A DNA stretch of 64,000 nucleotides from Papaver somniferum (Eukaryota; Streptophyta; Magnoliopsida; Ranunculales; Papaveraceae): contig NC_039358.1 of NCBI RefSeq assembly GCF_003573695.1, positions 100,130,117-100,194,116 of the forward strand, in the 5' to 3' direction. Position 1 is the first letter of the stretch; the number at the start of each line of letters is the position of its first letter. A program made the translations under genes and the position numbers. Below the pieces are notes generated by a model. It was given only the letters and a program-made list of their open reading frames with translations, ran no database searches and was not told where the DNA came from. Positions 4,984-56,123 of this stretch are shown in pieces.

Positions 4984-5058
4984 TTCCTATCTGTATCTCA
5001 TCAAAAGCAATAGCCTTAGATTTGCCTTCTTCTGGAAGAAACTTTTTAATTGCAGCAG

Positions 5059-5700: not shown

Positions 5701-5714
5701 AAACTGTTGTTGTA

Positions 5715-5999: not shown

Positions 6000-6086
6000 G
6001 GCGGAACGGGTACGGCATGGATTAATACCCTTGCGAGATGGAAACCAAGAACAAAGTGTGCGACAAAATTGTGGCCATGTTAGTTC

Positions 6087-6814: not shown

Positions 6815-6832
6815 AACCTAGTTGATACCAGA
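6815..6832 (-). other. Primer-binding site of the nested element
   Basis: The complement reads TGGTATCAAC from about 6830 downward, next to the LTR. TGGTATCA matches the 3' end of plant initiator tRNA-Met and fixes the element's orientation as minus. Confidence 0.75.
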
Positions 6833-7087
6833 TGAAAGGATCTTGATACTAATCACACAAGACCCTAATACTCACTCAAACCATAATAACCATTTGATCC
6901 GTTGATTGGAAAGCAGCCACCATAATAAGCAGAGCTTACTTAAATTTGTTTCATTAATTTTCTTGGATTATCCAAACCCTAAAACAAACTATATATTTAT
7001 AATAATCAATACTTGTAATGCAAGGAAATAACTCTAAACTAATTACTAAAAGCACCCGTAATGTTATTTGGTGTCGGTGTCCCAACA
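6833..7087 (-). repeat. 5' LTR (minus-strand sense) of the nested element
   Basis: 255 bp, from TGAAAGGATC at 6833 to CCCAACA at 7087. On the minus strand it precedes the primer-binding site. Confidence 0.92.
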
Positions 7088-7092
7088 TACCC

Positions 7093-9008: not shown

Positions 9009-9039
9009 AAGCTTTGACAGTCCATCACACTGGGGACTA

Positions 9040-10265: not shown

Positions 10266-10468
10266 GTATGCCTGATCAACAGAAAGCAATTACTTTTTCA
10301 TCATTCAAGCATATTTCAAAATATAATTTATATTCCTCCAAAAGAGAGTGCAAAATTCTCATTTGTTCATTAGACATTCATCAATTGAACAAAATTCCTT
10401 CATATAATCAATTATTCTACCTTACCCAAAAGAATATCTTAAAACCTACAACCATCTCAAGTGATCAC

Positions 10469-11465: not shown

Positions 11466-12024
11466 GATAATGAGAGGTATGATCGTGATCAAAATTTCTT
11501 TTGATAATATGCAAAAGCGGAAGAAGATATGTCATATAAATAAGGAACCCCGAGTCTTGAAGATATATACAAGATACAGTGGATACTTATCTTCTGCGGA
11601 TAGTCAACTCAGTTGCGAGCTTTACTGAAACCCTAAGTTTCAAACAAGATCAATACTGGAGACGTGGAGGAAAATAACGTATTGGGGACTGACAATGACC
11701 AAAGCTGGACATAGTTTGAAAATATCCCCACGGCTTTGTGCACGTCACACGTCTTCCCAGCCTATGCGACACATTCTAGTATTATTCATAGACGGAAGTC
11801 ACTGGAGCACGCTGAAAGGGATTATGATGGATTTTGGCACAGGAACATTGATTCATTTCATTTAATTCAATCATAAGTGCAAGAGGAATCAATATTAATA
11901 AAAGGGTTTCTCATTCAAAAAAGAAAATCCTAATTCTGAAGTGAAGTTGTTCAAATAATCAAAGAGATGTATACTATGAAGACTGAAAAAACGTTCAAAT
12001 GTTCAAACAAGATTATGAGCAAGA

Positions 12025-12538
12025 CTAATCGTCAGAGTCATCCGATTCGTCGTCATCATCACCATCATCCTCTTCAGACTCTTTCTCGGAATCACTGTCT
12101 GATCTGGGGAATTCTTCCTCGAGATCGCCATACATTGCATAACAGTAATCTTCTTCATCACGTTCATCTTGGAGATCAGCCTCAACCAATCGCTCAATCT
12201 CTCTGTGTATGGCCTACTTCTGCGTACCATCGGCTCCCATATAGGTTCCTCTTCTTCGGCATATGAGTCTGAAGCTACACCATCAGGACGAGATCGGAGT
12301 TTCTCCTCAGCTTCTAGTGTTTTCCGCTGAATTTTACGCCTTTTCTCCCGATAATCAGCTATTATCTCCTCCCTGGCTTTCCTCTTCTAGAGCTCATCAC
12401 GAACAACTTTCAGCTCATCGAGGGGCATGCTATTTATTATCTTCTTAGCACGATCCGCATTGGCACGTGCATTAGCAGCAGAGATCTTGAAATCCTCCTC
12501 AGAAGAGCTAGAAGAATAATCACTGCTGGAAGTCACCA
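12025..12538 (-). pseudogene. Antisense gene B of the outer Tat element (acidic protein)
   Basis: On the minus strand an ATG at 12538 follows an acceptor-like TTCTGGTTCCAG by three bases. The protein begins Ser-rich (MVTSSSDYSSSS), continues basic and helical, and ends strongly acidic (SEEDDGDDDDESDDSDD) at TAG 12025-12027. It is interrupted by one in-frame TAG near 12390 and one frameshift near 12215. Small exon-like pieces upstream (near 12621-12635 and 12680-12693) have AG and GT borders, and a 5' UTR exon is likely at 13351-13485. Charged, low-complexity composition suggests a nuclear or nucleic-acid partner, but that is inference. Confidence 0.6.
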
Positions 12539-13350
12539 TTATCTGGAACCAGAAACACAGAATCATGGATATGCCAATGTCAATTTCACAATGAAATGGT
12601 AATCCTTAACTCTTACCTGTTTGTGATTTCACTAACAGAGTGATTATGATATAGGAGTTAACACTTCAAAACTCACTCGTTTCTTCGAACCTACAAAGTG
12701 AACAAAACTTTAGTTTTCGAAACTTGATTTTTCATAAAATCATGAACTTAATTTCTACTATGCGAACATTCACCATTGAGTTATGAAAAATTCACACCAA
12801 GGCAATATTTCATCATAAATAATTGTCTACTTTTAATGATTATTCAAAATCAAAATTTGATTTTCCAACAAAATAATATTTATATATATGAAAACATGAT
12901 TTACTCACGTATTCTTTTAAAAAAATAAGTATATATATATATATAATATATTTTTGAACGTGAGCAAAACTCACGTGAATAAAAAAAAATAGTGAATATT
13001 TCACGGTTTTAACAAAAAAAAAAACTTTCTCTTTCGTACGATCGTCCGTCTTTGAAACGAAGGTTTATTTCGATTTTGTGAAGATTCACACCTTTTAAGA
13101 TAAAGTTTTGGTTTTCATGAAAGCTCATAGACAAAATTTTATCACTGGACACAGGTCTATTTCAAAAAAAAAATCTCTCTTAAGCTAGGGATTATTGCTA
13201 GTTTCTTGAACTAATGATCGAACGAACGTACGTTCCTAAAACAAGGGTTTTTTCATAAAACACACGCCTATGTATACATATGTATATACAAGTTTAACAT
13301 GAACAACTCATGAACAAACAACAAACTTTCGGGAAAAAAAAATCGCTTAC

Positions 13351-13517
13351 TTGGTCGGTGTCGGCCGGACGGTGGTGGCGACGGTCGGACGCTGGTGGCT
13401 CCGGCGAGATCTTCTGCTCTCCTTCTCTGCTGCTGACGTGAAGAAGATGAAGGGGTGAAGGTGGTGGTCGTTCGTGTGGAGGAGAAATAAAAAAAAAAGG
13501 TTTTGTTCCCTTTTATA
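13351..13517 (-). promoter_or_regulatory. Candidate antisense promoter and 5' UTR exon in the Tat element
   Basis: Minus-strand TATAAAA at 13511-13517 (context GATATAAAAGGGAAC) is followed by CT-rich sequence typical of a plant 5' UTR, ending at a donor CCAA|GTAAGC (exon end 13351). A GGGCCC core, found in plant site II promoter elements, lies just upstream at 13562-13567. This would drive antisense gene B through a ~0.8 kb leader intron. Confidence 0.5.
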
Positions 13518-13802
13518 TCAAATTTTATTTCCAAAACCTAATTCCACAAGGATTTCCTTTTGGGCCCGAACCCGTGAATCCTAAACCGACCAAGGTTCCA
13601 TCACCGAATCAGCGGTGCTACATCAATTTACGCTCGTTAGATGATGCTCTTCATGCCACTGGGATCTTCGTTCAAGCCATGGTTCGCTCGTGCAGTCGAA
13701 AATCCGGTAACATCTTATCTTACGACTAAGTTCAATTACTTATTTTGTTCATAACTAGAAAATCACCATCCAGTGCTGACTGAGGAACATGATTGTCCCT
13801 CA

Positions 13803-13819
13803 CTAAGTAGGGGACTTAA
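13803..13819 (+). other. Polypurine tract of the outer Tat element
   Basis: ctaagtaggggacttaa ends directly before the 3' LTR start TGTAGATG at 13820. A GGGGAC core next to an LTR is the usual plus-strand primer of plant Ty3/gypsy elements. Confidence 0.82.
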
Positions 13820-14539
13820 TGTAGATGGTGGATTTTCTATAAAGGCTAAAATCGTAAAACCATAATTGTACATACTCCTGATCCAGCAATCAGATGAGTA
13901 TTAAGGTTCATGTCTCTCATTGAAGCATGAAAGCTCATGCCGCAAGAACCTCTGACTGAGAATACTGTCTCTCAGAGCATATGAATATGCAGTCACTCAA
14001 CTGAGGCAACGACATATCTCATGAATACTGAGCAATTTCAGTAATTACTTCTATATAGAATCGAACGATTGGACGGCTCCTAGACAGCTTGCCTGCTAGT
14101 ATAGAGCAATAACGTCTTCAGGATGTAACAATGTTTTGCCTGACTATATAAAAAAAATATGACGCTTAAACAAGCTCATGTCGCTCAATTCTTGAATAAT
14201 TAATGCTCCTAGGCGATCGTGCTAGTATAGAGCCATCAATTAATTATTTCTAAATCATTAGATTCATTAACTGAATCCCTAGAAAATATTCTACGTTTTT
14301 CATAATATTTCATTACTTCAATTCATGGTTCTTCCCAGCAGAATTCCATGGGTTAGTGATAAATATTCAACGTACGGGCATCTGAGCCGCTATCGAGTAA
14401 GCCCCGACCAAAATGGTGCAAGTGTATTCAGCAATAATGCACTAACGAGCACCTGAATGCACGAACGAGCGTTCCAAAATACGAAGGAACGATGAACCTA
14501 TGCAAAATAGGGAGAAAAATAATAATATAAAATATTAGG

Positions 14540-15200
14540 TAAGGCGCCAGGGGATTGGCCCACCGGCCGGCCAGTCATGTCGTGGCCAGTCTCACGCCTA
14601 ATTCTTTATTTTATCATATTTTTATTATTTTTCCTTGATCTCATGAAAATCCCTTCATTTGAACAAAACTCATTCGTTTGAGGAAACTCCTCAGTTTCAT
14701 GGTGTTTCCTTCATACCAAGGAAATAATATAAAATTGGGAAAGGTGTCAAAGGACCGGGTCTACTAGACGGTCGGTTATGCCCTAGTTGTGGCCGGTCCC
14801 ACACCTCATGATTCCTTATTATTTTATTATTATTATTTCCTTCATCCCATGAAATTCCTTGATTTCATGATATTTCCTTCAAATCATGAAAATAATATAA
14901 AATTAGGGAAAATTCACGGGACCGGGCCACTAGTCGGCCGACCATGCCCTAGCCATGCGCGGTCCCACACGCCCCTTATTTAATTATTATTATTATTATT
15001 GTTTCCTTCATCTCATGGAAATTCCTTCATTCAAGGAAACTCCTTAGTTTCACAAACTCCTTGATTTCATGATATTTCCTTAAAATCATGAAAATAATAT
15101 AAAATTAGGAAAAAGTGCCATGGGACCGGGCTTATTGGCCGTCCGGCCATGCCTTAGCCATATCCGGTCCCACACTTCATGATTCCTTGTTTTATTGTTA
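14540..15200 (+). repeat. Irregular tandem repeats inside the 3' LTR
   Basis: Four diverged units of about 165-210 bp, each with a GC-rich core around ccggtcccac (near 14585, 14793, 14958 and 15161) and AT-rich arms with ttccttcat and aaaataatataaaatt. A further related core lies at about 15375, and its match in the 5' LTR is at about 117. Spacing varies, so expansion was imprecise. Confidence 0.72.
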
Positions 15201-16415
15201 TTATTTCCTTCATCTTATGAAGTTTCTTCAGTTTGAGCAAAAACTTTCATATTTTCTCAAAATGTTGCTCAAACGCGCATCAGAAAATATCAAAATTTTC
15301 AGGACTGAGACAACACTTTGGTGACATGAGCATATTACCTTGACCGACCAAGGTTGGCTCTTTGGCTTGCAAGAGGCCGGTCCCACATATTTTCATCATT
15401 TGACCTAATTTATTCACATTAGGTTCAAACTCTTCCAAACAATTTGGAATTTCATAAAACGATCGTCAGTCGGTCCCATGACCAACCAGGGCCGGTTTCA
15501 TAACCCCTTGGTCGGTCCCTCATCTCTTCATAATTAGGTTTTATCACCTATGGCTCAGACGAGCATTATTTTAATGAATGATTAAACCAGGATTTAATCA
15601 TCCTTTCACCAACTGGTCTTCAAGAGACTTTGGTATTTTCTCACTCGAGCATCTGGGCGTTACATGGTCGACTCATCATCCCATGTAGCCGATCCCTCCT
15701 TCACTCGGTGGTTGATTTTTAATAAATCATCAATTAATCAACAATTGACCAAAATTAGGGTTTCGAATCCAAAGCTCTGCAAAACATAATTCTGAGCAGA
15801 TTCAAACACTAATAATTTTACGTTGATCCCGTGATCAACATTTTAATTATCATACTCGGTTCAGTTGCCAGTATTTTAAATTAATATTTTATTTGGTTCT
15901 GTTACCAATAATTCATCAAATGAGCAACATTTGCTCAGATGAGAAATATTTGCTCAGACTAAGGAATATTGGTTCAACTATCAATATTCAACAATTCATC
16001 AAATGAGCAATATTGGTTCACCTTAACTATCAACATTTATTCGACAATTATACCTCTGTCTCAACAGACACGTTCAATTCATGAGTCCCAGAACATTTGT
16101 TCAACTCCGCAATACAAAGACTCATCGTCTCATCAAGTCACAACTGACTAACTAAAATCACGAGACATCAATCGTGTCACATGGGGGGATATCAACTAGG
16201 GTTTTTGGTCTGGCGGTCTACAACACGTGTTCATACACGATGAGAATGTGAGCAAGTCGTGCAAGCAGTTAGAGGAGTTACCAAAGTAGTGGGTAGAAAA
16301 TCAACCAAGTCTCCGCACGATGAGCAACTGGTTTTAACGCGATTTCCACTTCCCCACTCTTTGACTCCAGCAACTGTCGCACTTCATGGGATCAAGGTGT
16401 TTACAATTCTTTCAA

Positions 16416-16423
16416 TATAAATA
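16416..16423 (+). promoter_or_regulatory. TATA box of the 3' LTR
   Basis: TATAAATA in the same context as the boxes at 1187 and 1714. It could drive readout transcription towards 16.9 kb. Confidence 0.5.
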
Positions 16424-17119
16424 AGTCTCTGAATCATGATTGAAACAACATACAATCTTTCGTCAAACAAACAACAAGAGAACAAAAACTCAACGTCTGA
16501 ACAATTACTCTCAACAGAGCAAATTCAATCAATAAGAACTTATCTTATTTCTTCACGTATAATACACAACATACCTACAATTTTGATCACCATTGATCTC
16601 ACACATTTCTAAGCTTCCCTCCAACAGATCGGCCCATCCTCTCTTGTGACCGAATTGACTCTGGAACGACCATTGTCTTGGTTTAGGCCGGAGTCCTACA
16701 GATTGATCTCTCGAATTCAAAGCACTCCCTTTTTGCAGTGCATCTGTGTGAGGTTAAACAGTTCTCTCGGTTCAAGGAGTTTCCTCCGCACTGTCGTCTC
16801 CTCAATTCCTTAAAAAACAGCAACTAGTTTTGCCCCATCTACAGCTCTATACAATGATGCTTCATATATATATATATATCGATTATTTTGAGCTTCTTAC
16901 TTAAAATCGATGCTTCATATACATCGATTGCGAACGATATTTTATAAATATCGATTTTATAAATAACTTATTATTTAACCTAAAGAGCATTACATGCTAT
17001 TTCTCGCGACAAGTCTCACAACTTGACTTGTAGCTAGCATATGACCGCCCGCCGCCTAGCTTGTGCGTGATTTGTCAAAAAATAGGTCTTGCAAGTAAGA
17101 CCCACTCAGCGACTTGCCA

Positions 17120-38379: not shown

Positions 38380-38487
38380 TGTGATGATCCTAGGTCTCGT
38401 GGTCTTTATAAAGGATTACTTATGAGAATTAAACAAGCTTATGAAGAGAAGGTGATAAATATAATCGTGGATTTTGATGGTGAAAAT
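38380..38487 (+). pseudogene. Short LINE-like coding flank left of the copia element
   Basis: An open frame (DPRSRGLYKGLLMRIKQAYE) runs up to the left LTR. The right flank after 53109 continues as a similarly charged frame (EIENFCLDSDNEKW) that leads into LINE endonuclease text. It is therefore plausibly the same LINE, split by the insertion. Confidence 0.4.
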
Positions 38488-40890
38488 AGGGGGTCTAACA
38501 ACCTCACCCAAAATTGCGCTTAGCAATCTGTATGGACTAACTCCAATATACTTTCAAGAGAATCAACTAGACGGTCAGACTCAATCTTAAGAAAAAGTAT
38601 ATCCAAGAGTTATATCTCAATTTCTCGATTCAATCCGCAATCAAACAAATAGGAATTTGCGAGCCTGATTGAATATAAGAGAAATAACTTGAACAGTACG
38701 AAAGACCAATGTTCAAGGATCAATCAATTTCAATCAACAACCAAAGGTTGGATTTACCAATTGATCGATTCAACGCACAACCTGTGATATTTCAATTATA
38801 TAACAAAATATAATGCGGAAAAGAAATAACACAGACACCAGAAGTTTTGTTGACGAGGAAACCACAAATGCAGAAAAACCCCGGGACCTAGTTCAGATTT
38901 GAACACACATTGTATTAAGCCGCAAAAGACACTAGCCTACTCCAAGTTAACTTCAGACTGGAATGTAGTTGAGCCCTAATCAATCTCACACTGATCAAGG
39001 TATAGTTATGTTCCTTACGCCTCAAGAACCACGCCTGATTCTGCGCACTTGGTTCCCTTGGCTGATCTCACCCACAACTAAGAGTTGCTACGACCCAAAG
39101 TCGAAGACTTGATAAATAAATCCGTATCACACAGAAAAGTCTATTGAATAGATAAATCTGTCTCCCACAGAAATACCTATATATTCCGTCTTTTGATAAA
39201 TCAAGGTGACCATGAAACAATTGATAAATCAGACTTATATTCCCGGAGAACAACCTAGTATTATCAATCACCTGACAATAATCTTAATCGATTAACGAAA
39301 CAAGATATTGTGGAATCACAAACGATGAGACAAAGGTGTTTGTGACTACTTTTCAATCTTGCTTATCGGAGATAAAATCTCAAGCAAATCTTAAAGAAGA
39401 TAGTACTCAATCACAATAGAAAACAGCAAGATCAGAACAAACAACTACAGAGAAAATAGTTGGGTCTGGATTCACAATCCCATTGAAGTCTTTAAGTTGT
39501 TAACCTACAGGGTTTAATGAAAACCCTAATGTTAAAGGAGAATCGACTCTAGCTTATGCAACTAGTATCACACAGGAGGTGTGGGGATTAGGTTTCCCAG
39601 TTGCTAGAGTTCTCCTTTATATAGATTTTAAATCAGGGTTTGCAATCTAAGTTACCTTGGTAACAAAGCATTCAATATTCATTGTTAGATGAAAACTTGA
39701 TTAGATTCAAGCTAATATATTTCAACCGTTAGATCAAACTTAGCTTGTTATATACAAATGAAATGTACCTTCATTTAGGTTTGAGTAACGTAGATAAACG
39801 TGTACACTTAGTCGGTTCAACAATAATTAACCAATGGTTAGCCATATGATCACTTTCAAATCAACCTTATTCATCTTTACCATAACTAGTTCAAATGACT
39901 CAAATGAAACTAGTTAGAGAGTTGTTCAATTGCTTAGATCTCATAGAAGTATACAAGACACAATTGAAGCAAAATCGATTTTGATTCACCCGAATTAATT
40001 CATGAACATCATAGCCACGGTTTGCAAAATATTGCATTCCTTATTATGTGAATGTTTTGATTCATGAACAAACCGATTTTAGAAAGTAACATACTTAAGT
40101 ATGAAAACGAGTACGCATACCTAAGTAGCCGGACCGAGTTTGGTTACGCCAGTACGCGGACGGGTACGCATACCAATTCACACTTCCAAACTCCAGCAGA
40201 AATTCACGGAACCCAAACTTCCGCCAGTACGCCTACCCATGTTCCGTACTTCCAACAACCAACCAGTACGCGTACGGGTACGCATACTTAGGTTACCGGC
40301 TTTGGATTTTACACAAATGTGAATACACACTATGTTTATATACAAACATGGTTACTTGTTCTAAACTCTTATTTCAATCATTGAAACTTTCTTAGTGGAC
40401 GAAAATAGTTGTTATCCACAAACTATTAGCATCAAAGCAATTTTCAAGTTATTGAAATAATCAATATGACTTTCGTCAAGAGTAAAGATGAACTTGGTTA
40501 AAGTGAAAGCTTACCAACACATATTTCCAGAAATAGATAAGTGAGTTAAACTCAGCTCGAAATAGCAAATGTGTATAATTGAAGTCTATATAGCAATACG
40601 AATTTTGTCTCAAAATAAGAGATAGAATGAATAGGTAGACTTTTGACTGATAGATAAGTTCAAGTCTCCACATACCTTTTGTTGATGAAGTTCCACAAGT
40701 TCCCTTGAGTAGTTCTTCGTCTTCATTCGATGAATGTCGTGGAGTCTAAAGCTCAACTACACTTACCATCCTAATCCGAGAATTAGCTACAAGTAGATTA
40801 GAAATCAAGACTTATAGTTTTGGAAAATAAACTTGACAAACAAGCTTGAGATAGCAACGCTTGCGAGTTCGACCGAGCAGTGCTCTAATA
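38488..40890 (-). repeat. 3' LTR (minus-strand sense) of the copia element
   Basis: It begins (plus strand) ggggtctaacaacctcaccc and ends gagcagtgctctaata. It matches the right LTR throughout. The plus-strand region 40090-40300 contains repeats of acgggtacgcata. Confidence 0.92.
39615..39624 (-). promoter_or_regulatory. TATA box of the copia LTR
   Basis: The minus strand reads CTATATAAAG, conserved in the other LTR at 51874-51883. Confidence 0.55.
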
Positions 40891-40910
40891 ATCTCCCCCT
40901 TTGTCAATTG
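40891..40910 (-). other. Polypurine tract of the copia element
   Basis: The plus strand atctccccctttgtcaat reads ATTGACAAAGGGGGAGAT on the minus strand, directly before the 3' LTR. Confidence 0.8.
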
Positions 40911-42284
40911 TAGTGGCAAAACTATCAATACAAAATAAATAAACATTGTAGCTTCTCATTCAAATGCTTGATCTCCTTGTTTCTTCAACATTACTCGAAA
41001 TCTTCGTCCCTTCCAAGTACTCAAATGATTCAAAATGTGTTCAATTCATCATCATCGTTGTTGAAGATCCATAGATATAACAATGAGAAAACAATAGCTC
41101 TCAATCATTGTTATACAGTGTCATAGGATTATTACACAACATCAAAGTTCAATTGTATCACAACTTCGAAAACAATACTATGGTGATATGTATCACTCCC
41201 CCTTAGTCAATACTTCATCTCATATGAAAACCACTCCCCCTTACATAAAGATCCGTAAACCATATGTATTTGTAGTGTAAACTACACATTAATTCTCCCC
41301 CTTTTTGTCAATAAAATTGGCAAATATACGAAAATTAGTGGGATCCTAATGAAATTTCCATAGAGACACTTCATGACCAAAATAGAAGCACATATCAACT
41401 TGTTTAGATGCAATCATATAGCAGAAACTAAATACATTCATCAAGGAGTTTATAAAGATACAAGATAACGCTTATAATATTCCAAATCCGCACTCCCCAC
41501 AAAGATTTGGAAATTAAGCACAAGTTCAATTAAGAACTCTCCCCCATAAAATATCATTCCCGAAAGAACAACAAGAACGACCTTACTTTTACAAGAAAAG
41601 AAGGATTTCTTTGGACATTAACAAATCACATGAAACATGAATTTGTATCCAAAAATCTCAATTGAATTAACCACAAGGAAAATGATCAATTCAATTGGTC
41701 ATGCTCAACATAAGAGAACTGACGGAGCAACACAATACATACACAAAGATGTGGATCAGGGAGAAACCAATACTGCGGAATAATCAAAGATCCATTCTAT
41801 TTTTCATCATCATTTGCACAATGACATATAATAGACTTAACCTTTGTAAACAAAAGTTCATCCTTTCTTCCATTAATATTTGCATAATGACATAAAAGGC
41901 TTAACTTTTTTAATCTAAAGTTCATTCTATCTTTTATCAATACTTTTATACCGACATATAATAGAGTTAACTTTTGAACAAGTATGGGACAGTGAAGGTT
42001 CACGGACGTAAACAACATTCCCATAACAATTTGCAATATATAAAACCATAAAGATTAATACTGCAAAAATCATCTTCCAAATAAACTTTAGAATTTAAAT
42101 AAATAAATCTAAAAACATTGCAAGATGAAAAAACGTGGCAATAGCTATGTGTACTCACAATAATGGCTATTCCAAGCCCTAGTTATCATTCTTAAAAACA
42201 CAAGAATAAATTCTCATAAGAAGTATCCTAGAAAATAAACAAGAGAACAAAAACAATTCTGAGACCAACACAACCCAACACATG
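40911..42284 (-). other. Non-coding 3' interior of the copia element
   Basis: About 1.4 kb without an ORF of coding character. Several purine-rich runs on the minus strand (complements of ctcccccttag near 41205, ctcccccttac near 41233, ctccccctttttgtc near 41294) look like duplicated polypurine tracts. A ~65-bp motif (agttcat.ctttt / gacataa) repeats irregularly at 41790-41960. Confidence 0.55.
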
Positions 42285-42911
42285 TTAAAAACAGAGATTG
42301 TGTTCAGTAACTTCACGGGTTTCTAGACCTTCAAGCTTGTGACTGACAGTATCAACAGCTTCTTTGGAGAAGATATCCTCTTTGAGAAGATCCTTAACAT
42401 GTGACTTCTTGAGAACAAGGTCAGATTTAACCTTTTTCAACTCAGTTTGTAAAACATCAAGATCCTTCTTAGAGTTTTCAAGCTTCAGTTTTGCTCTCCG
42501 GAGATCATTGAGAAAACCATGAACTACTTTAGAAGAAACCATCTCGGCATTTTCTCGATCTTGATGAGAGTATGCATAAAAGCATGATGCACCAGGATGA
42601 AGATTGTCACCTTTAACAATGGTTCTTTTCTTCTTTACTTCGAACTCGAAGTAAATAGAGTTATTAGTAAAATCTTCCGGCAAATCCCAAGAACACGGAG
42701 GAGCATCCATTCTAGATAAACAAAACCTGGAGTATGCATACTCAAGCAAAAGTTTTTGGTATTTAAATGGTTTCTCAAGGAAACACAGTTTAGGGTTTCC
42801 AAAGAAGGTCTGTGACACGTAATATGGGTACCCGTGCGAACACAAACTAGACCCATAGTCGGAAAATGCCTCAATATTGAAAAACATAACGCAAGAAAAC
42901 AAGTTTAACAA
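42285..42911 (-). pseudogene. Coiled-coil ORF of the copia element
   Basis: A minus-strand frame of 208 codons. A good start may be the ATG of MDAPPCSWDLPEDF (about 42710). The C-terminal half is rich in Lys, Glu and Leu with heptad spacing (DVLQTELKKVKSDLVLKK), so it is probably a coiled coil. It has no enzyme motif and lies where pol or env would be. Coiled-coil ORFs occur in SIRE-type gag, so it may be displaced gag sequence. The function is unknown. Confidence 0.45.
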
Positions 42912-43104
42912 CAGAGTTTTGCTACACGAATAATTTTACAAAATTTAGCTCAATAAATTTTACATTATCATCAGAGAAAAATTTAGAGCATAAAAGTAGC
43001 ATTTTGACCTACCAAAATTTCAAAAATAAATTAAAGAAAAACAAAAGTTTCGTCAAAACAAAATACAAATACTTATGCAAACATGTTTGTAAAAGATAAT
43101 CCAG

Positions 43105-43456
43105 CTAGGAGAGGTAAGAAAATAGCCAGAGAATCGGGAAACACTTTACCATCAAGTATACCTGACCATATCTCACCCAACAAGGATTTTTTGTGAGTGA
43201 GATTTCAACCTTGTGATTAATTAGCACAAGTATGAGCCTTGAGCTCATCAAATGAACATTGTTTTCGGTTAAACCTATTTCTTCTGAACTTTGGAGGAAA
43301 ACCATTATGATGCGAACAGTTATCATAAAATTTACTATTATCAAAATACGACGCATAGTATGTATTCTTACCTGAAGAATTTTGACTAGAGGGAATTGAA
43401 AGCCTGTTAATAGTCTCTTTATAACCTTTAATTATCATTTTTAGGTTGTCTTCCAT
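43105..43456 (-). pseudogene. ORF fragment downstream of copia gag
   Basis: Minus-strand frames continuing the gag region after a stop: MIIKGYKETINRL, then a polar, basic segment with HHNGFPPKFRRNRF. Composition fits a gag tail or spacer. No further motif is visible. Confidence 0.35.
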
Positions 43457-43459
43457 CTC

Positions 43460-44422
43460 TCATTTTTTGCTTCCTTCTTCTGGTACCTTTTCCACATCAT
43501 GAACAACATTATCTCCCTTTTTAATAAAAGAAAAACCATGAGTTCTTCTTGAACGAAATGGTTTAGGAAGACTGTTTCGCAATTGAACATTTGAGGAACA
43601 CATCGAACTGACTTTCCTGGTGGGGTACACAGGGTGAGTACTAAAACCAATTGGTCTAGACATACGAATGTCAGTTACACCTTTGAGAATTAAATCTAAG
43701 GTGTTTTGAAGACGAACAATAAAATTGTCATTCAACCTCGATTTCCTCTTTTGTTCAACATGTCCTTTTGAATCACAAAAGAGACACACTTTCTGATCAC
43801 CTGAGTGATTAGATAACACAGTCTTAACACCATCGTTGGGAGATATCTTCCTTCCATGTGATGTGGATATTCCTTGATTATAGGAAGACACAAGCACATC
43901 TCCTTCAACATGAAGGAATTTCGATTTTGCTTCTGGAACAAAAAATTTTCCAGTTAAATCAGGAGCAGTTGGTATAGTGGACTCTTTGGAACATTCTTGA
44001 ATAGAGAGTTCACTCAAAATAAGTTCAATTTCCAAAGCATCCTCTTTGAGTTTTTCCTCAAGCAGCGTTCGTGAAGAACAGACTGAGGCTTTTTCCTCTC
44101 GAAGAACCTTTAGAAGAGAGTCATGCTCATTTACCATACCAACAAGAATATTGACTTTGTGTTTCAGTCGGTTGACATTATCATCCTAGATTTTAACAAG
44201 TTTTAGAATCACTGCACTCTCTTTGGTTGCTTCCCTTTGAACTTCAGAGTAAGACTCGTCAGTAAGGTAATCCGGGTAACACTTGTCAATAGAAATCTGT
44301 TTCGTTAAAACACTAGGTTCGGCTATATTCGAGATTGATAAATCTTTCTCTTCAATAGATTTCATATAAACAGACCTTTTGTTATTGGTGATGTGTTTAT
44401 CAAAGATAGCACTTCTGTCCAT
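43460..44422 (-). pseudogene. SIRE-type gag-like protein
   Basis: Two minus-strand frames in the same phase, 44422-44186 and 44137-43460, joined through a TAG at 44186-44188. The second has a helical, charged N-terminal part (SLLKVLREEKASV, EEKLKEDALEIEL) and a zinc-knuckle remnant CLFCDSKGHVEQKR, in which the last Cys is lost. Gag would form the particle and bind RNA. It lies directly after the primer-binding site, as expected. Confidence 0.65.
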
Positions 44423-44467
44423 ATTCAGATCGCTACAAACACAGACTTATGAGGTCTTTAATGTGTT

Positions 44468-44484
44468 TGCCTGCTCTGATACCA
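44468..44484 (-). other. Primer-binding site of the copia element
   Basis: Minus strand TTGGTATCAGAGCAGG, complementary to the initiator tRNA-Met 3' end, ten bases inside the right LTR. Confidence 0.85.
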
Positions 44485-45008
44485 ATTGAAAAAGTGGGGG
44501 TCTAACAACCTCACCCAATATTTCTCTTAGCAATCTATATGGACAAACTCCAATATACTTTCAAGAGAATCAACTAGACAGACAGACTCAATCTTAAGAA
44601 AAAGTATATCCAAGAGTTATATCTCTATTTCTCAATTCAATCCGCAATCAAACAAATAGGAATTTGCGAGCCTGATTGAATATAAGAGAAATAACTTGAA
44701 CGGTACCAAATACCAATGTTTAAGGATCAATCAATTTCAATCAATAACCAAAGATTGGATTTACCAATTGATCGATTCAACGCACAACCTGTGATATTTC
44801 AATTATATAACAAAATATAATGCGAAAAAGAAATAACACAGACACCAGAAGTTTTGTTAACGAGGATACCGAAAATGCAGAAAAACCCCGGGACCTAGTC
44901 CAGATTTGAACACCACAATGTATTAAGCCGCCACAGACACTAGCCTACTCCAAGTTAACTTCGGACTAGAATGTAGTTCAGCCCTAATCAATCTCACACT
45001 GATCAAGG

Positions 45009-45466
45009 TGTAGGATCAGAATCTCGCAACAATTATGTCTCAGCGAAATGATCAATGGTATTGCACAATAGCGTCGCAAAACAATTTCAGAAACGACGTC
45101 AGCAAGGATCATGAGAAAGATGTGATAGTCTTGCGAAAATTAGAGAGCTTGCGAAATTAACATTTGTAAAGTTGTGAGAATGTCGCAAACCATATCCGAA
45201 AATAAAGGACAGATTAGCTGTCATCCACTATGTATTTCCTTATAAATAGTCATTCCAGTTGTAAAAAGAGGGAGAGATCTTTTTTGAGTAAGAAACAAGT
45301 AAATAGGAGAGAGAAAGTTCAGAGCAAAGTTCATTCTTGATTTCTTTATCTTTCTTGTAAGAACATTCAAAAATTAATCAATAAAATTAAGAGTGTAAAC
45401 CTAAAAATGAGTTGATCAACAATGAAATCATATGAGGGGTGAAGTGTAGGATTTCCTGCAACTACA
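45009..45466 (+). repeat. 5' LTR of the gag-only element
   Basis: 458 bp, TGTAGGATCAG to GCAACTACA, with TATAAATA at 45241-45248. Confidence 0.95.
45241..45248 (+). promoter_or_regulatory. TATA box of the gag-only element's LTR
   Basis: TATAAATA, preserved in the right LTR at 51022-51029. Confidence 0.65.
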
Positions 45467-45468
45467 TA

Positions 45469-45486
45469 ATGGCGCTAGAAACAGGG
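45469..45486 (+). other. Primer-binding site of the gag-only element
   Basis: tggcgctagaaacaggga, three bases after the LTR and starting TGG. The tRNA was not assigned. Confidence 0.75.
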
Positions 45487-45602
45487 ACGAGTTGAAGATT
45501 ATTCTAGAGAAAACTAAAAATTGATATTGAGATTTGTGAAAATTTAAAATGATTGATTAAGAATTTTTCATAATTTCTTCCAATATTGTTAGCATTGAAG
45601 AA

Positions 45603-47775
45603 ATGGCTAGAAGAAGAAATACATCCGAACAACCGAATACTATTAGAAGAAGCAAGTGAATTGCTGAAAGAGAAAGAAGTGAGATGGGAGAATCTACTAG
45701 AATGAGAAATAATAGAGAAAATCTAATTCAATCACCAATTCAACAAACATTAGTTCAAGAGAGGAATACAAATTATGACAGAGTGAGCATACACACTTGG
45801 CGATCAAATTCAGCAGAAGAAATAGAAGAAGAACAACAAAATAGAAATTATAGACAGGAAGAGAGAAATCAAGAAGCAGATGAAGGAATAATTCATGGAA
45901 ATGAGGAAATTGGAGCGTTAGAAACATTGAGACGAATAATAGATGAAGAAAGAAGAGCTGAGGCAGAAGAACGTGCGAATCTAACAAGGCAAAATCACGA
46001 ATTAAGGATGGAGAATATCAAATTGCAGAATAGAAGATCGAGAAGTATTACAAAATCATATTCCAGATCGATTAGAAGAGAAATGAGGCAAAATTCACCC
46101 ACGATCAATGCTGGAAACAATATTCATGAAGAAATATCAAATCCTAATGAAGAATATCGCGAAAATAGAGAAAGAACTGATGATCGTTACATTCCACAAA
46201 ATGAAACTTTTGATGATGGGCAAATTGGAGGAAATCAAGAGAACGAGCAAATTCAGAGACAATATAACCAAGATGGCGAAGGAAATCAAGAGGAGGGAAG
46301 AAGAATTTTACACGTGAGAGAAAATCAAAGAAATCAACAGACAATTGAAGAAGAAATTGAAAGACATAATGCTGAACAAGCACGTTTAATCTGCGAACGT
46401 GAAAGGTTGAGAGCGGAGATGGAAGAGCAAGAGCTTCAGGAGACAATTCGCCAAAACAATCATGAACATCGAGAAAGAAGGCATATACAAAACCGGAATA
46501 ATGATAATCTCAATTAGGAGTATGATAGAGTGAAGAGAATGGCTGAAAGACAGCGAATTGAGTTGATAAGAAATGAACAAAATTATGGAGGGGAAAATGA
46601 ACGACATCATCATTTGCGAATTCAAGATAGGGATGAGGAAGAGAATCGCAGAAGAAGACGATATGAGGATAATGAAGAAGAGATACGAAATTTCGCAAGA
46701 GAAGATAGACGTGAACGCAGAAGAAGAGAAGCAAAATTAAAGAGACCAAGGGCCAAGATTCAGGTGTAAATAAAAAAATCTTGAAAGAATTAGAAGAAAT
46801 GAGAGGAATGCTAAATAACAGAGGAGAAGTAGGTAGAAGACAATTGGATGAAGCAATATAAGAAGCTGCGAAAACTCCATTTACAAGGGAAGTACAATTG
46901 AGAGGAATACCACCGAAATGCAATTTTCCCGCATTAACCAGCATTTTCGATGGAACAACTTGTGCAATTCAACACATTAAAGCTTATGTGAGGTGCATGT
47001 TACAATGGGAAAATCATGATGTGGTATTGTGCAAATATTTTGCATCCAGTTTAACAGGAGAAGCGCTAAAATGGTTTGAATATTTACCAAAGAATACAAT
47101 AACCCCCTTCAATCATTTGCAGACCACATTCTTGGGAGCATATATAAGTAATAATTCCTCACGACCTGGTATAGAAGATGTGTTTGGATTAAAACAAAGG
47201 ATTGGCGAAAGTTTGAAACACTTGAATAAAAGATGGAGAACTATGTGTAGCGAAATGGATGGCCGTGTAGATGAGAGATATCTCACATTATCATTTATCA
47301 ATGTTATGTTTGCAACAAACCAGTTGTATGTTCAAATTTTCAGAGTCAAGAAGACGATTACAATGACTGAATTGTGAGAACTTCAAGAAGAATACATTGC
47401 TTTAGAGGAAAAACAAAATGAAATGGAATCATATCCATTTGCGAACACCAGCTCACAAACAGCGAATGCAAGCTTATTACCCAAGCTAATAAATATAGTG
47501 GCGAATACTTCGCAATACAACAAGAAAAGGAGACAAATAACAATCAGCAGAAATTGGAAGTTATGGGGAGCCGAGATCAAGAAGAGTATGAAAGAGAAAG
47601 AAATTTCTACAGACGTGGAGGAAATAACAAGATTCAAAGACTCGATCAACCGCAAGAAACTTATGGAGATCAAAGACCAAACTTTAATAGAGGGCAAGGA
47701 AGTCATAAAGTAATATTGGAAAAAATCAAGATGCCACCTCTAAAGGCAAGTGTAGAGAACTTCCATCACTATTAG
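45603..47775 (+). pseudogene. gag of the Tat-like element, with stops and frameshifts
   Basis: It begins MARRRNTSEQP at 45603. In-frame TGA at 45657-45659, TAG at 46515-46517 and a shift plus TAA between 46769 and 46862 break it. The first ~370 codons are unusually rich in Arg, Glu, Asn and Gln. The Retrotrans_gag core follows at about 46940-47377 (FDGTT, CKYFASSLTGEALKWFEYLP, HLNKRWRTM), then an Arg/Gly/Asn-rich tail (FNRGQGS, about 47690). No CCHC knuckle and no protease follow. Gag would build the particle. Its 3' end overlaps the antisense gene tail to tail at 47726-47775. Confidence 0.85.
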
Positions 47776-50420
47776 ACTCTTCATCGTCAGCTTCGCTATC
47801 AGAGATAATCAAACTGGGAGTGTTCTGTGGGATTTCTTCTAAAAGACAAGGATAATCAGAATGTGGGATATTATGATCATCACAAACTATTTGGATGGTT
47901 TGGTTGCGAAAGTGCGTAGCGTCATTCTTAAAATTCTCAACAGTGATTATGATTTGATTCTTCAATCTAGAATACTTGTCGTTGCAAGAAGAAAGATTCT
48001 TTGCGAGTTCCTTCTTTTCAGCTTCAAGTTCTTCAATCTTTTCACGATATTTATTTTCAGAATCTGCGAACAAAAGGCAACCAATTATTAACTTGATGAA
48101 AATTCATAAGAAGCAAAAGATTAGTAAAGAAGAGCAATTAGCAACCTTCTCTGTCAGAAATCATGTCTCTAATCAAGGTTGTATGTTCAACTTGGAGACT
48201 AACATTTACGCCTAAATCTTTTCTAGCATCATCTAAAATTTTCGCAGCCCAGACAAATTCATCCTCACTACTTATGAGAAGACGAGAACGAATTTTATTT
48301 TCCCTTTCGCAGAGTTCAATATTCTTGCGGTTAGCTTCATCTCGCTCAAGTTGAACTTCAAGGAGAGCCTCTTGGAATTTCCCTAAAGCCTTGGCACCTT
48401 GATCAGAGATACGATCCTTATCATCTATGAGACCGCTAATTTTGGTTTTTAATTCATTGGTTTTATCTTTGGAATCAATAAGGAGACGCTTAAATCTGTT
48501 AGTTAAGCCTAAACTGGATCTATGATCAATTTCTAAGAGGCGAAATTTCGATCTAAGTTCATTTAGAGAAAGAGATGAAATTCTATCATTTGAAAAGCTA
48601 TTTAAAGAATTGTTAAGACGTTCAAGAAGGGTATCATTATCCAAGGCATTAGGGAATGAGCGAAGAAGGGTGGCTTCATCATAAAGACCATAGATGTCTG
48701 CAAAAAGGATTATTTAAATAAGATAAAACAACAGGATGAATGAATAAAGAGAAAAGAGAAAAGTAACATACCGTAAAGCTGATTATTAGCTTGTTGAAGA
48801 CTAGAAATTTTATTCTTATACGAGGAAGAATCAATTTCTGATTGTCTATTTCTCTCGCGAAGACTTTTAACTTCAGCTTCCAATTCTTCCGTTTCTCATG
48901 ATCCTTCCAATTCTTCATTCTTTTTGCGAAATTGAAGATTTTTCTTTTCAAGATTTTCGCGTCTTCTCTCCAGATCTGAGGCAACAACAAAGGAAGCTTT
49001 TCCATCCTGCGAAAACAAATAAAAAATATTAATATGGAAAGAGATTTTGAGTTATAACAATAAAAAAGTAAAAAGATAAAAGTATACCAAACTATTGAGA
49101 GAATGCAAGAAGTCGGGAGTCACTGATCTAGAAACTCTGCGAAGAGAGTTATCACCATCCAGTAAAGTGACATCACAAAGGGTGACGACAGCTGTGCAGG
49201 TATTTGCGAATTTGCTATCTCCCATCCCTTGTAGAGAATCAGAAAAGAGGCCAGAAAGCTTAGCCATAGAAGATTCAGGTGGAGAATCTTCAGTCGCAGC
49301 AAGATCATCGTTATCTTCATCACCCTTATCACTTTCAGAACTTTCGTTAGGAAGAACATTTGAAGGAGAAGGAGAACGAACTTTTCTTTTCTTTGGAGGA
49401 GGACCAGTTGATTTTTCCCTGCGAAGAGTACCTTTACCTTTATCACCAATCTTTGCAGCATCAACAGATTCTTCTACTTCAGCAATAACCTTCACACACA
49501 GATAGAAATAAGAAATGGAAGCATGGAAGTAACAGTACTATTTAAAGTCATGAGAGAAAATCTCTTACATCATCTGTGTATGAGAAAAGATCTAACAGAG
49601 TACTAGATTTCCCAGTCCGGTTATAACTATCCTTTAGTTTTTGGATCTGCGAAATATCGCAAGAGTTAGCGAACAGAATAGTAAAAAATCAATAAAGAAA
49701 TATAAAATGAGTTAAAGGGGAGAAACATACCTCTTTCTTCTTCTCGGGCCAAGAGAAAACCCAAGGTTGATATGCAGCGAGATTCACAGGAAGAACGTTT
49801 GATCCAACAATGTAAGGACCCTTTAGCATTAAAGGAAACACACACCATTTGTCATCTTTGGATTGACGAGGAGTTGTATTTTTACCAGAATGTCAGTCAA
49901 TATCTTGCATAAGAATTTTGGCTTCATCAATATTATCTTTCCTTCTTAATTGAATACCCCAGCGAGTATTCTCCTTCTTCATGGAGATAAGTTCGTAGTT
50001 TTCAAAGAAATTCGCCACTGTACATTTCTCAGCAACTATCTCTAGGTCTGCGAATTTTGGATCCCTAAGTTATGTGGAGTAAAGAGATCCTCTACCAGCA
50101 CCACGATTAGCGAATTCTAGCATCAGACGGATGCAATCCCCACTTAGTTGGAAAATGGATCGCGAAAATTTCGGATGAGCGAGAATTTCATAAAATAAAG
50201 GAATTTCTGGGTTATAAAGAGGAATAGGGAGACCTTCGAGAAGTTGACCTAGAGAAATTATGATTGATTGATCATCACAATTTTGATTGGAGAAAAGCTT
50301 GACAGAAAGAATTGATTTAGCATTCATACCAGGAATGGGGGAGAGTGAAAGACCTTTATTAGCAAGATCTTTTTGGACATCTTGTAGATTCTTCTCATAT
50401 CTATGACCACTTGGAGCCAT
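47726..50420 (-). pseudogene. Six-exon antisense gene inside the Tat-like element (765 codons)
   Basis: Exons on the minus strand: 50420-49731, 49646-49569, 49489-49088, 49006-48772, 48697-48146 and 48063-47726. All donors are GT and acceptors AG (several TTTCGCAG or TTTTGCAG), and every phase matches (2295 bp). Residues 1-230 form a globular part whose stretch GLPIPLYNPEIPLFYEIL resembles the plant 'putative gypsy-type transposon' domain. Residues 286-293 are PPPKKRKV, a classical NLS-like motif. About 391-700 are coiled coil, and the tail is acidic (ISDSEADDEESNSDG). Three in-frame stops (codons 117, 176 and 427; 50070-50072, 49893-49895, 48896-48898) make this copy a pseudogene. A nuclear accessory role is inference. 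Confidence 0.85.
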
Positions 50421-50580
50421 GTTTAAATACAGAGTATGGGAATGTATAGAAAGAAAAAGAATTGAAGGAAGAAAAAATTACAGCAACAGAATTTGCAGAA
50501 GAATGACAAAGTTGCAGAGATAAGAGAATAAAAATAGAAGAGAAAGTAAAAAAGAAAAGTGGAAAGAGGGGGGAGAAGAG

Positions 50581-50590
50581 TATATAAATA
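50581..50590 (-). promoter_or_regulatory. TATA box of the antisense gene
   Basis: The minus strand reads TATTTATATA, about 160 bp before the ATG at 50420, followed by a CT-rich leader (cttctccccc, ctttccac) as in plant 5' UTRs. It lies outside the LTR (which starts at 50790), so the gene has a promoter of its own. Confidence 0.5.
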
Positions 50591-50789: not shown

Positions 50790-51247
50790 TGTAGGATCAG
50801 AATCTCGCAACAATTATGTCTCAGCGAAATTATCAATGGTATTGCACAATAGCTTCGCAAAACAATTTCAGAAACGACGTCAGCAAGGATCATGAGAAAG
50901 ATGTGATAGTCTTGTGAAAATTAGAGAGCTTGCGAAATCAACATTTGTAAAGTTGCGAGAATGTCGCAAACCATATCCGAAAATAAAGGACAGATTAGCT
51001 GTCATCCACTATGTATTTCCTTATAAATAGTCATTCGAGTTGTAAAAAGAGGGAGAGATCTTTTTTGAGTAAGAAACAAATAAATAAGAGAGAGAAAGTT
51101 CGGAGAAAAGTTCATTCTTGATTTCTTTATCTTTCTTGTAAGAACATTCAAAAATTAATCAATAAAATTAAGAGTGTAAACCTAAAAATGAGTTGATCAA
51201 CAATGAAATCATATGAGGGGTGTAGTGTAGGATTTCCTGCAACTACA
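50790..51247 (+). repeat. 3' LTR of the gag-only element
   Basis: 458 bp, same ends and length as 45009-45466. Confidence 0.95.
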
Positions 51248-51873
51248 CAAGGTACAGTTACGTTCCTTACGCTTCAAGAACCACACCTGATTCTGCACAC
51301 TTGATTCCCTTAGCTGATCTCACCCACTACTAAGAGTTGCTACGACCCAAAGTCGAAGACTTGATAAACAAATATGTATCACAAAGAAAAGTCTATTGAA
51401 TAGATAAATCTGTCTCCCACAGAAATACCTACGAGTTTTTTTTTCCGTCTTTTGATAAATCAAGGTGAACAAGAACCAATTGATAAACCAGACTTATATT
51501 CCCGAAGAACAGCCTAGTATTATCAATCACCTCACAATAATCTTAATCGATTAACGAAACAAGATATTGTGGAATCACAAACGATGAGACGAAGGTGTTT
51601 GTGACTACTTTTAAATCTTGCCTATCGGAGATAAAATCTCGAGCAAATCTTAAAGAAGATAATACTCAATCACAATAGAAAACAACAAGATCAGAAAACA
51701 CAACTACTGAGAAGATAGTTGGGCCTGGCTTCACAATCCCAATAAAGTCTTTAAGTCGTTAACCTACAGGGTTTCGTGAAAAACCTAAGGTTAAAGGAGA
51801 ATCGAGTCTAGCTTATGCAACTAGTATCACACAGGAGGTGTGGGGATTAGGTTTCCCAGTTGCTAGAGTTCTC

Positions 51874-51883
51874 CTTTATATAG
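51874..51883 (-). promoter_or_regulatory. TATA box of the split copia LTR
   Basis: Minus strand CTATATAAAG, as at 39615-39624. Confidence 0.55.
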
Positions 51884-53109
51884 ATTTCAAATCAAGGTTT
51901 GCAATCTAGGTTACCTTGGTAACAAAGAATTCAATATTCACAGTTAGATGAAAACCTGATTAGATTCAAGCTAATATCTTTCAACCGTTAGATTGAACTT
52001 AGCTTGTTATACACAAATGAAATGTACCTTCATTTAGGTTTGAGTAACCGTACCTAAACATGTACACTTAGTCGGTTCAACAATAGTTAACCAATGGTTA
52101 GCCATATGAGAACTTTCATATCAACCTTATTCATCTTTACCATAACTAGTTCAAATGACTCAAATGAAACTAGTTAGAGAGTTGTTCAATTGCTAGATCT
52201 CATTGAAGTATACACGACACAATTGAAGCAAAATCGATTTTGATTCACTCGAATAATTTATGAACATCATAGCCACGGTTTGCAAAATATTTCATTCCTT
52301 ATTATGTAAATGTTTTAGTTCATGAACAAACCGATTTTAGAAAGTAACCTACTTAAGTATGAAAACGGGTGCGCATACCTAAGTAGCTGGAACGAGTTTG
52401 GTTACGCCAGTACGCGTACGGGTACGCATACCAATTCACACTTCCAAATTCCAACAGAAATTCACAGAACCCAAACTTCCGCATGTACGCGTACGGGTAC
52501 GCATACTTAGGTTCCCGGTTTTGGGTTTTACACAAATGTTAATACACACTATGTTTATATCCAAACATGGTTACTTGTTCTAAACTCTCATTTCAACCAT
52601 TGAAACTTTCTTAGAGGATTACAATAGTTGTTATCCACAAACTATTAGCATCAAAGCAATTTTCAAGTTATTGAAATAATCAATATGACTTTCGTCAAGA
52701 GTAAAGATGAACTTGGTTAAAGTGAAAGCTTACCAACACATATTTCGAGAAATAGATAAGTGAGTTAAACTCAGCTCGAAATAGCAAATGTGTATAATTG
52801 AAGTCTATATAGCAATACGACTTTTGTCTCAAGATATGAGATAGAATGAATAGATTGACTTTTGAGTGATAGATAAGTTCAAGTCTCCAGATACCTTTTG
52901 TTGATGAAGTTACACAAGTTCCCTTGAGTAGTTCTTCGTCTTCATTCGATGAACGTCGTGGAGTATAAAGCTCAACTACACTTACTATCCTAATCCGAGA
53001 CTTAACTATAAGTAGAATAGAAATCAAGACTTATAGTTTTGGCAACTAAACTTGACAAACAAGCTTGAGATAGCAACGGTTGCGAGTTCGACCGAGCAGT
53101 GCTCTAACA

Positions 53110-55680: not shown

Positions 55681-55705
55681 AAAAATAAATTTACTTTAAG
55701 GTATA

Positions 55706-56114
55706 GAGGGAGGATCCATGGACACTCTTAGATGAACAAGGTCGGACAAGATTTGTGCCATTTTCTCCGTAAAACCCAAACGATAATGAATTTAAGTTTA
55801 ATATTTTATTGATATGTTCCTATTATAGGACTCTACATTCCTACAAAAAATTAGCACAATTCGAGATGTATAAAACCACCATCTACCGCTTTGAATATCA
55901 GTCGTTCAAAATTAACGGTTGAAATTACGATCGATGGATGGTCAGGTTTGCTATCTTGAATTGCATTCATTTTTGGTAGGAATGTAAAGTCTAATAATAG
56001 AAACATATCAATAAAATAGTAGACTTAAATTCATTGTCGTTTGAGTTTTGCGGAGAAAATGACGTAAATGTTATTCGACCTTGTCTATCTAAGAGTGTCC
56101 ATGGATCCTCCCTC
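55706..56114. mobile_element. MITE, 409 bp, 9-bp target-site duplication (Mutator-like)
   Basis: The ends gagggaggatccatggacac and its reverse complement form long inverted repeats extending about 90 bp inward with mismatches. The exact 9-bp duplication taaggtata lies at 55697-55705 and 56115-56123. A 9-bp TSD with long TIRs is typical of Mutator-like elements. No transposase. Confidence 0.92.
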
Positions 56115-56123
56115 TAAGGTATA

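What the first reader, a model, noticed from the sequence alone, without database searches (positions are those of the whole stretch)
47726..50420. Six-exon spliced gene antisense to gag inside a gag-only Tat-like retrotransposon
Six minus-strand exons with GT/AG borders join in perfect phase into 765 codons, which is very unlikely by chance. The product has a globular N-terminus resembling the plant 'putative gypsy-type transposon' domain, an NLS-like PPPKKRKV, long coiled coils and an acidic tail. It has its own TATA box outside the LTR. An element that dropped pol but kept this gene suggests that the gene was useful to it. Extra antisense ORFs are known in Tat-group elements; a multi-exon gene kept by a gag-only element deserves a closer look. 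Three stops kill this copy.
Basis: partly seen in the sequence, partly recalled or inferred. Interest (0 to 1): 0.9.

Follow-up and report, generated by a model that had tools for sequence, protein, structure and literature searches.

The report
Spliced antisense gene in poppy retrotransposon
A jumping element present in many copies in the opium poppy genome carries, on its opposite strand, a six-exon gene that selection has preserved across several element families; such opposite-strand genes are known in related plant elements, but no earlier description of one with five conserved introns was found.

Summary
Six minus-strand exons (50420-47726) join at GT/AG borders into one frame with three internal stops, far beyond chance. 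The window is opium poppy, judged by protein hits and genome size. The gene is multicopy: 149 siblings scored at 92-96% identity in exon 5, splice-site pairs kept at 62 of 70, dN/dS 0.26 overall and 0.21 at the largest distances, and two further families, 38-58% identical, with the same architecture. Corrections: this copy lacks about 2.65 kb found in siblings, so it looks gag-only and its last ~10 codons are a fusion; siblings encode gag plus protease, with no RT or integrase match in 12 of 12 contexts. No PF04195 match was found. The window's LTRs match gag-less, pol-bearing elements (97%) better than those of three gag-type siblings (85-88%), implying recombination. Antisense accessory ORFs and this gag/pol split are known (PMC11963269, PMC12582370); the five-intron architecture and the unmatched N-domain look new. 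Function is inferred: a nuclear coiled-coil accessory factor.

The parts
45004..45008 (.). target-site duplication CAAGG (left)
   Evidence: repeated at 51248-51252
45009..45466 (+). 5' LTR (TG...CA), 97% identical to the 3' LTR; 11 of 458 sites differ, about 1.5 My at 8.1e-9
45470..45489 (+). putative primer binding site (TGGCGCTAGAAACAGGGACG); its first 18 bases are also in pol-type L035
   Evidence: the tRNA was not identified
45684..47377 (+). gag: N-terminal low-complexity region and capsid domain (Retrotrans_gag PF03732 in 46898-47377, E 1.8e-7), broken by stops
47756..47759 (.). deletion junction; L037, L038, L039 and L056 hold about 2.62-2.67 kb here (rest of gag, protease, non-coding 3' region)
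47726..48063 (-). antisense exon 6: coiled coil and acidic tail; codons from 47755 downwards are fused to gag-side DNA by the deletion
48146..48697 (-). antisense exon 5: coiled coil, the most constrained exon (pN/pS 0.14)
48772..49006 (-). antisense exon 4: coiled coil; one internal stop (codon 427)
49088..49489 (-). antisense exon 3: serine-rich and charged, NLS-like PPPKKRKV, least constrained exon (pN/pS 0.53)
49569..49646 (-). antisense exon 2
49731..50420 (-). antisense exon 1: conserved N-terminal domain of about 230 residues with no Pfam match; two internal stops (codons 117, 176)
50577..50586 (-). TATA-like motif TATATACTCT, 166 nt upstream of the ATG, between gene and 3' LTR
50790..51247 (+). 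3' LTR
51248..51252 (.). target-site duplication CAAGG (right)

Best explanation
SHOWN: this is a decayed, internally deleted copy of an abundant poppy LTR element family whose complete siblings encode gag and protease but show no RT or integrase, and which carries, downstream of gag and on the opposite strand, a six-exon gene starting about 370 nt from the 3' LTR. The gene behaves as a protein-coding, spliced gene: frame, splice sites and intron order persist, and non-synonymous change is suppressed at larger distances while recent pairs approach neutral decay. INFERRED: it is transcribed from its own promoter near the 3' LTR. Because it runs antisense, its introns are not introns in the genomic RNA, so they survive reverse transcription. 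The product, an N-domain followed by a basic NLS-like segment, long coiled coil and acidic tail, is most likely an oligomeric nuclear accessory factor that helps elements of this group in trans (control of element transcription or silencing, or a nuclear step of the pre-integration complex). Reverse transcriptase and integrase would be supplied by pol-bearing partners with nearly the same LTRs and primer site, with which the family has recombined. Confidence: about 0.9 for the anatomy and selection, about 0.35-0.4 for the role.
For: Spliced frame beyond chance. 150 scored matches of exon 5 including the window itself, 144 of the 150 without a stop by my count, though the list holds best hits only. 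Splice-site pairs intact at 62 of 70 (14 copies x 5 introns). dN/dS 0.256 overall, falling from 0.61 to 0.21 with distance (13 copies, 78 pairs; dN/intron divergence 0.49). In the P0002 family exon-5 dN/dS falls from 1.22 at dS<0.05 (12 pairs) to 0.22 at dS 0.8-1.5 (30 pairs). Introns 4 and 5 at the same places in the P0001 gene (L061), introns 3 and 5 in L031, intron 4 in L034. Gag in the expected opposite orientation in 10 of 12 contexts, RT or integrase in 0 of 12. LTR mosaic with pol-type elements. TATA-like motif in the 12 copies examined.
Against: No transcript was examined: splicing and promoter use are read from sequence and from database gene models only, and at least one such model (P0002) contains an artificial intron around a stop. 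The N-domain has no recognised relative and its models are poor (mean pLDDT 34.8 and 51.7), so a nuclear or DNA role rests on a motif and analogy. 12 of 14 copies have at least one in-frame stop, and of 30 exon length changes against the window only 16 are multiples of three, many of them the same shared 27-base difference. Across families the antisense protein changes faster than gag capsid (pN/pS 0.38-0.49 for exon 5 against 0.11-0.24), so constraint is real but weaker. In 1 of 12 contexts gag is in an orientation that does not fit (L057) and in 1 it is absent from the stretch held (L063). The copies are related, so pairwise values are not independent, and copies were picked by protein similarity.
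Confidence: 0.6

Rival explanations
1. The antisense transcript, not the protein, matters: it pairs with genomic RNA and tunes silencing or translation, and the frame is incidental.
For: Antisense RNA from such regions and a possible dsRNA role are discussed in PMC7264820. Promoter-side sequence is shared by gag-type and pol-type elements while gene bodies differ.
Against: It does not predict a falling dN/dS or splice-site retention, nor a protein conserved over families whose DNA has diverged.
Confidence: 0.12
2. The gene is a transduced host gene carried as cargo.
For: Multi-exon structure, and database names that suggest host genes (cAMP-inducible prespore protein-like, interactor of constitutive active ROPs-like).
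Against: The two named loci traced (P0001 in L061, P0002 in L031) lie opposite gag in elements of this kind. The 13 named profile hits are poppy proteins whose names show no common host function, some of them evident chimeras; the other 5 hits are unnamed. No Pfam match for the N-domain.
Confidence: 0.05
3. A divergent member of the TRP28 (Transposase_28, PF04195) antisense ORF family of Retand elements.
For: Same strand, same place next to the 3' LTR, coiled-coil-type domains (Smc and others) in some. TRP28 was found in 97% of the Retand clusters surveyed (PMC11963269). By eye, and from recall, the proline/aromatic pattern of exon 1 looks alike.
Against: No PF04195 match with any of four N-domains at E<=10, in the genome (controls silent) or among the profile hits.
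Confidence: 0.35
4. The N-domain gene acts only in cis, as a packaging or regulatory DNA segment.
For: Both gag-type and pol-type elements keep an antisense coiled-coil ORF next to the 3' LTR.
Against: The selection is on codons, and the N-domain is not detectable in 8 of 8 pol-type loci (L050 and L035 are the same copy, so 7 distinct).
Confidence: 0.08

Closest known systems
Antisense TRP28 ORFs of Retand elements (PMC11963269; parts 1-3 of 5 of the text read)
   Same: Antisense to gag-pol, between the coding region and the 3' LTR, present in most clusters surveyed, proposed regulatory or DNA-binding role; non-autonomous members known.
   Different: Described as ORFs found with ORF Finder; here six exons with five conserved introns, no PF04195 match, carried by gag-protease elements without detected RT.
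Grande gene23 (maize), as reviewed in PMC7264820 (parts 1-2 of 3 read); the primary paper was not seen
   Same: Antisense accessory gene with its own promoter and nuclear product.
   Different: Carried by a different element; whether gene23 has introns was not checked, the primary paper not being read.
Papaver Retand Groups I, II and III (PMC12582370; passages read)
   Same: Group I has mainly GAG and PROT (sublineage M only GAG), Group II lacks GAG, Group III has all six domains: the layouts of the gag-type and pol-type elements seen here.
   Different: 'antisense' and 'spliced' occur 0 times in that main text; it mentions two additional transmembrane ORFs, whose figure is a supplement not seen. 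That my elements belong to those groups was not tested by sequence.
Cinful/Zeon of maize (PMC8547701; passages read)
   Same: Complementary pol-coding and GAG-coding members of one LTR family.
   Different: No spliced antisense gene is mentioned in the passages seen.

Membership tests
Retand lineage, Papaver Group I | RT/RH/INT phylogeny | not testable with these tools
   the element has no RT; the pol-type partner has one but no lineage tree was made
Retand lineage, Papaver Group I | GAG and PROT present, RT/RH/INT absent | tested here: met
   (protease motif read by eye in siblings; the window copy lost it; RT and integrase sought with two RT and one integrase queries)
Retand lineage, Papaver Group I | antisense ORF between coding region and 3' LTR | tested here: met
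Retand lineage, Papaver Group I | 5-bp target-site duplication | tested here: met
   perfect in the window, L056 and L038; one mismatch in L037; not matching in L039
TRP28 / Transposase_28 (PF04195) | match to the Pfam profile | tested here: not met
   one search found none, but its controls did not ring
Retroviral-type antisense accessory gene (HBZ-like way of working) | spliced antisense transcript from a promoter near the 3' LTR | not testable with these tools
   splice sites and a TATA-like motif only; no RNA data
Complementary gag-type / pol-type pair (Cinful-Zeon type) | separate elements coding gag or pol that share LTRs | tested here: met
   two pol-type elements examined whole; mutual dependence itself not tested

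The most novel reading that the evidence does not exclude
Poppy has a split retrotransposon system in which gag-protease elements carry a five-intron antisense gene with a previously unrecognised N-domain and pol-bearing elements carry a different antisense coiled-coil gene, so that antisense orientation serves as the way to keep an intron-bearing nuclear regulator through RNA-based replication, with the two halves held together by recombination of their LTRs.
Probability: 0.35. Interest if true: 0.75.

Novelty: new variant of a known kind. Interest (0 to 1): 0.52.

Why it matters
Antisense accessory ORFs are common in Retand elements but unexplained, and a 2020 review asked for a look at antisense and spliced transcripts (PMC7264820). 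Here one is a large multi-exon gene under measurable purifying selection, in elements that seem unable to copy themselves, with 149 close siblings scored and several thousand first-look candidates. It shows how a retroelement could keep introns through an RNA intermediate, and it gives a concrete family, junctions and a domain with which to test function.

Tried and rejected
PF04195 as the domain: rejected as unproven. An extra small intron in exon 1, suggested by database model P0002: rejected, because other copies read through there as coding. L033 as a minimal element holding only the antisense gene: rejected, because its left LTR is truncated and its right LTR is followed by a primer site, so it is a tandem or deletion derivative. 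Shared stops (codons 117 and 176 recur in other independent copies) as proof that broken copies move: rejected, because the window copy is closest to copies without them (30 against 6 diagnostic sites in exon 1), so recurrence or short recombination is not excluded. P0001 as a domesticated host gene: rejected, because it lies opposite a gag-protease ORF. Indels in multiples of three as support for coding: dropped on recount (16 of 30). Structure: models too weak, and the PDB fold search gave nothing at E<=0.001. PDB sequence search of the first 257 residues found nothing.

Errors of my own: one search stopped on a script error; one search failed to fit P0002 to L031 exactly and was replaced by reading frames; exon 6 was read in a wrong frame and redone; the gag value (0.43) included a copy with 3 stops in the aligned capsid (L038), and without it is 0.20; the exon-1 value (0.50) is above that (0.285), probably because copies with indels were read through by local alignment. 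Rows dropped: L044, near-identical to L045; L016, L031, L032 and L033, duplicates of other rows, where 5 of 465 pairs had no defined dS.
Full report
What is there. Six minus-strand exons between 50420 and 47726 join at GT..AG borders into 765 codons including the terminal stop, with three internal stops. The longest spliced frame with at most three stops is 2400 nt, against mean 938 and maximum 1230 in 100 dinucleotide shuffles, and 1218 on the opposite strand. The element is bounded by LTRs 45009-45466 and 50790-51247 (97%) with the TSD CAAGG and sits inside an LTR of an older element. The LTRs differ at 11 of 458 sites, about 1.5 My at the Papaver rate quoted in PMC12582370.

Host and homologues. 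The genome is 2.7 Gb and the named database matches are Papaver somniferum. The spliced protein finds P0001 (464 aa, 56% identity over 55% of the query) and, from its first 260 residues, P0002 (636 aa); in an alignment of the three the window matches P0001 at 254 of 439 and P0002 at 237 of 618 positions. A profile of N-domains finds 18 proteins at E<=1: 13 named P. somniferum, 5 unnamed; none has PF04195 (only 7992 candidates were scored). Pfam gives nothing for the window protein at E<=1 or for four unbroken N-domains at E<=10. The family search of the genome with PF04195 found none, but its controls did not ring either.

Siblings. Exon 5 alone gives 150 scored matches of 6726 candidates, the window itself and 149 others at 92-96% identity; 6 of the 150 listed have a stop in it by my count, and the list holds best hits only. 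Complete siblings L037, L038 and L039 are 8.4-8.9 kb. They match the window element on both sides of 47756-47759 but hold about 2.62-2.67 kb more there, as does L056: in L037 and L039 the rest of gag, a protease motif read by eye, and a non-coding stretch. The window copy is therefore a deletion derivative. Its gag-only appearance and the last ~10 codons of exon 6 come from that deletion.

Selection. In 14 copies GT/AG is kept at 62 of 70 splice-site pairs. Over 13 copies (78 pairs) dN/dS is 0.256, falling from 0.61 at small to 0.21 at the largest distances; dN is 0.49 of intron divergence; per exon the pN/pS ratio is 0.29, 0.30, 0.53, 0.31, 0.14 and 0.22. In the P0002 family, exon 5 of 31 sequences (30 loci plus the window) gives dN/dS 1.22 at dS below 0.05 and 0.22 at dS 0.8-1.5. 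This is the signature of source elements under constraint whose insertions then decay. Decay is plain: 12 of 14 copies have an in-frame stop, and of 30 exon length changes 14 are not multiples of three. Gag capsid in the window family gives 0.20 with the broken copy L038 left out. Between families the antisense exons change faster than gag (exon 5 pN/pS 0.38 and 0.49 against gag 0.11 and 0.24; synonymous sites are near saturation, so these ratios are overestimates).

Architecture across families. P0002-type genes (L031, L032, L034), the P0001 gene (L061) and the window family all lie opposite a gag. A 3' LTR just upstream of the gene was found in the window family and in L031, L032 and L034; in L061 the LTRs were not delimited. 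Of 12 contexts examined (window, L031, L032, L034, L037, L038, L039, L056, L057, L061, L062, L063), gag is present in the fitting orientation in 10, in a non-fitting orientation in 1 (L057) and absent from the stretch held in 1 (L063); RT or integrase of the tested kinds is found in 0. Not all stretches reach the 5' LTR. Introns 4 and 5 are at the same places in L061, introns 3 and 5 in L031 and intron 4 in L034; intron 5 of L031 has a GC rather than a GT donor, and the usual acceptor of intron 4 was not seen in L031. Database gene models of poppy use several of the same junctions, but P0002 also invents an intron around a stop, so models are weak evidence.

The pol-bearing partner. The window LTR has 40 scored matches of 3054 candidates, two of them its own LTRs, the others at 96-98%. 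Two complete elements, L035 and L036, share the LTR at 97% and the primer site but encode protease, RT, RNaseH and integrase and no detected gag (domains read from frames, RT also by tblastn). They carry another antisense ORF set: basic and coiled-coil, with a last-exon acceptor at a similar place and an acidic end; its longest exon has 150 scored matches including itself, 24 with stops by my count. The N-domain was not detectable in 8 loci, of which L035 and L050 are one copy. In 60-base bins the window element is 90-100% like L035/L036 over the LTRs, against 60-100% like L037-L039; just inside the 5' LTR this turns to 40-52% and mostly 88-95%. Three more copies of the N-domain gene have the same kind of LTR (L056, L057, L058: 93-97% to L035 and 84-86% to the L037 and L039 LTRs over full length; one partial match of L057 to the L037 LTR is 92.9% over 336 bases). 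The simplest reading is past template switching between co-packaged gag-type and pol-type RNAs; gene conversion is not excluded. Groups of these layouts were described in Papaver as Retand Groups I and II beside autonomous Group III (PMC12582370, passages), and a mutual dependence of this kind is described for maize Cinful and Zeon (PMC8547701, passages).

Mechanism. Shown: a conserved, spliced-looking, selected antisense gene. Inferred: own promoter (TATA-like motif at -153 to -167 in 12 window-family copies; in four P0002-type copies a similar motif lies at -52 to -142), intron survival because the introns are reverse-complemented in genomic RNA, and a nuclear accessory role from PPPKKRKV, coiled coils and the acidic tail (coiled coil judged by eye) and from analogy with Grande gene23 and the TRP28 proteins as summarised in PMC7264820 and PMC11963269. 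Structure prediction did not help (mean pLDDT 34.8 and 51.7; no PDB match at E<=0.001).

Novelty. Antisense accessory ORFs in this lineage and the gag/pol split are known. I found no description of a multi-exon antisense gene in such elements in eight full-text searches of the open-access library or in the passages seen of PMC11728184 and PMC6317226; most subscription papers are not held, and the gene23 paper was not read. I file it as a new variant of a known kind.

Noticed in passing
38483-45013 and 51248-53107: Outer LTR element with LTRs of about 2.4 kb into whose right LTR the studied element inserted (93-95% identity between its LTR parts).
   Followed up: partly
1-16844: Another large gypsy-type element with protease (2424-3254) and RT/RNaseH (7018-8385) frames, named by eye, and long, internally repeated LTRs of about 1.6-2.1 kb.
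   Followed up: no
55704-56116: Inverted repeat, arms of 203 nt, 80% complementary with a 7-nt loop; perhaps a MITE-like hairpin.
   Followed up: no
P0009, P0013, P0014: Poppy gene models that fuse parts of the N-domain to F-box/LRR, LRR and metalloproteinase-like sequences; annotation chimeras or real captures.
   Followed up: no
L050-L055, L035, L036: Pol-bearing, gag-less elements (L035, L036 seen whole) carry a different antisense coiled-coil ORF set without a detectable N-domain; 150 scored matches of its longest exon.
   Followed up: partly
G000:C3879:1542634-1549076: Three exon-5 matches of the family at a regular 2947-base spacing, a local tandem array of part of the element.
   Followed up: no
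L061 (G000:C10:27825500-27835400): A low-copy third family (two copies at 96-98%, the other matches listed at 67% or less, list cut) with a 644-codon open gag-protease frame opposite the antisense gene.
   Followed up: partly
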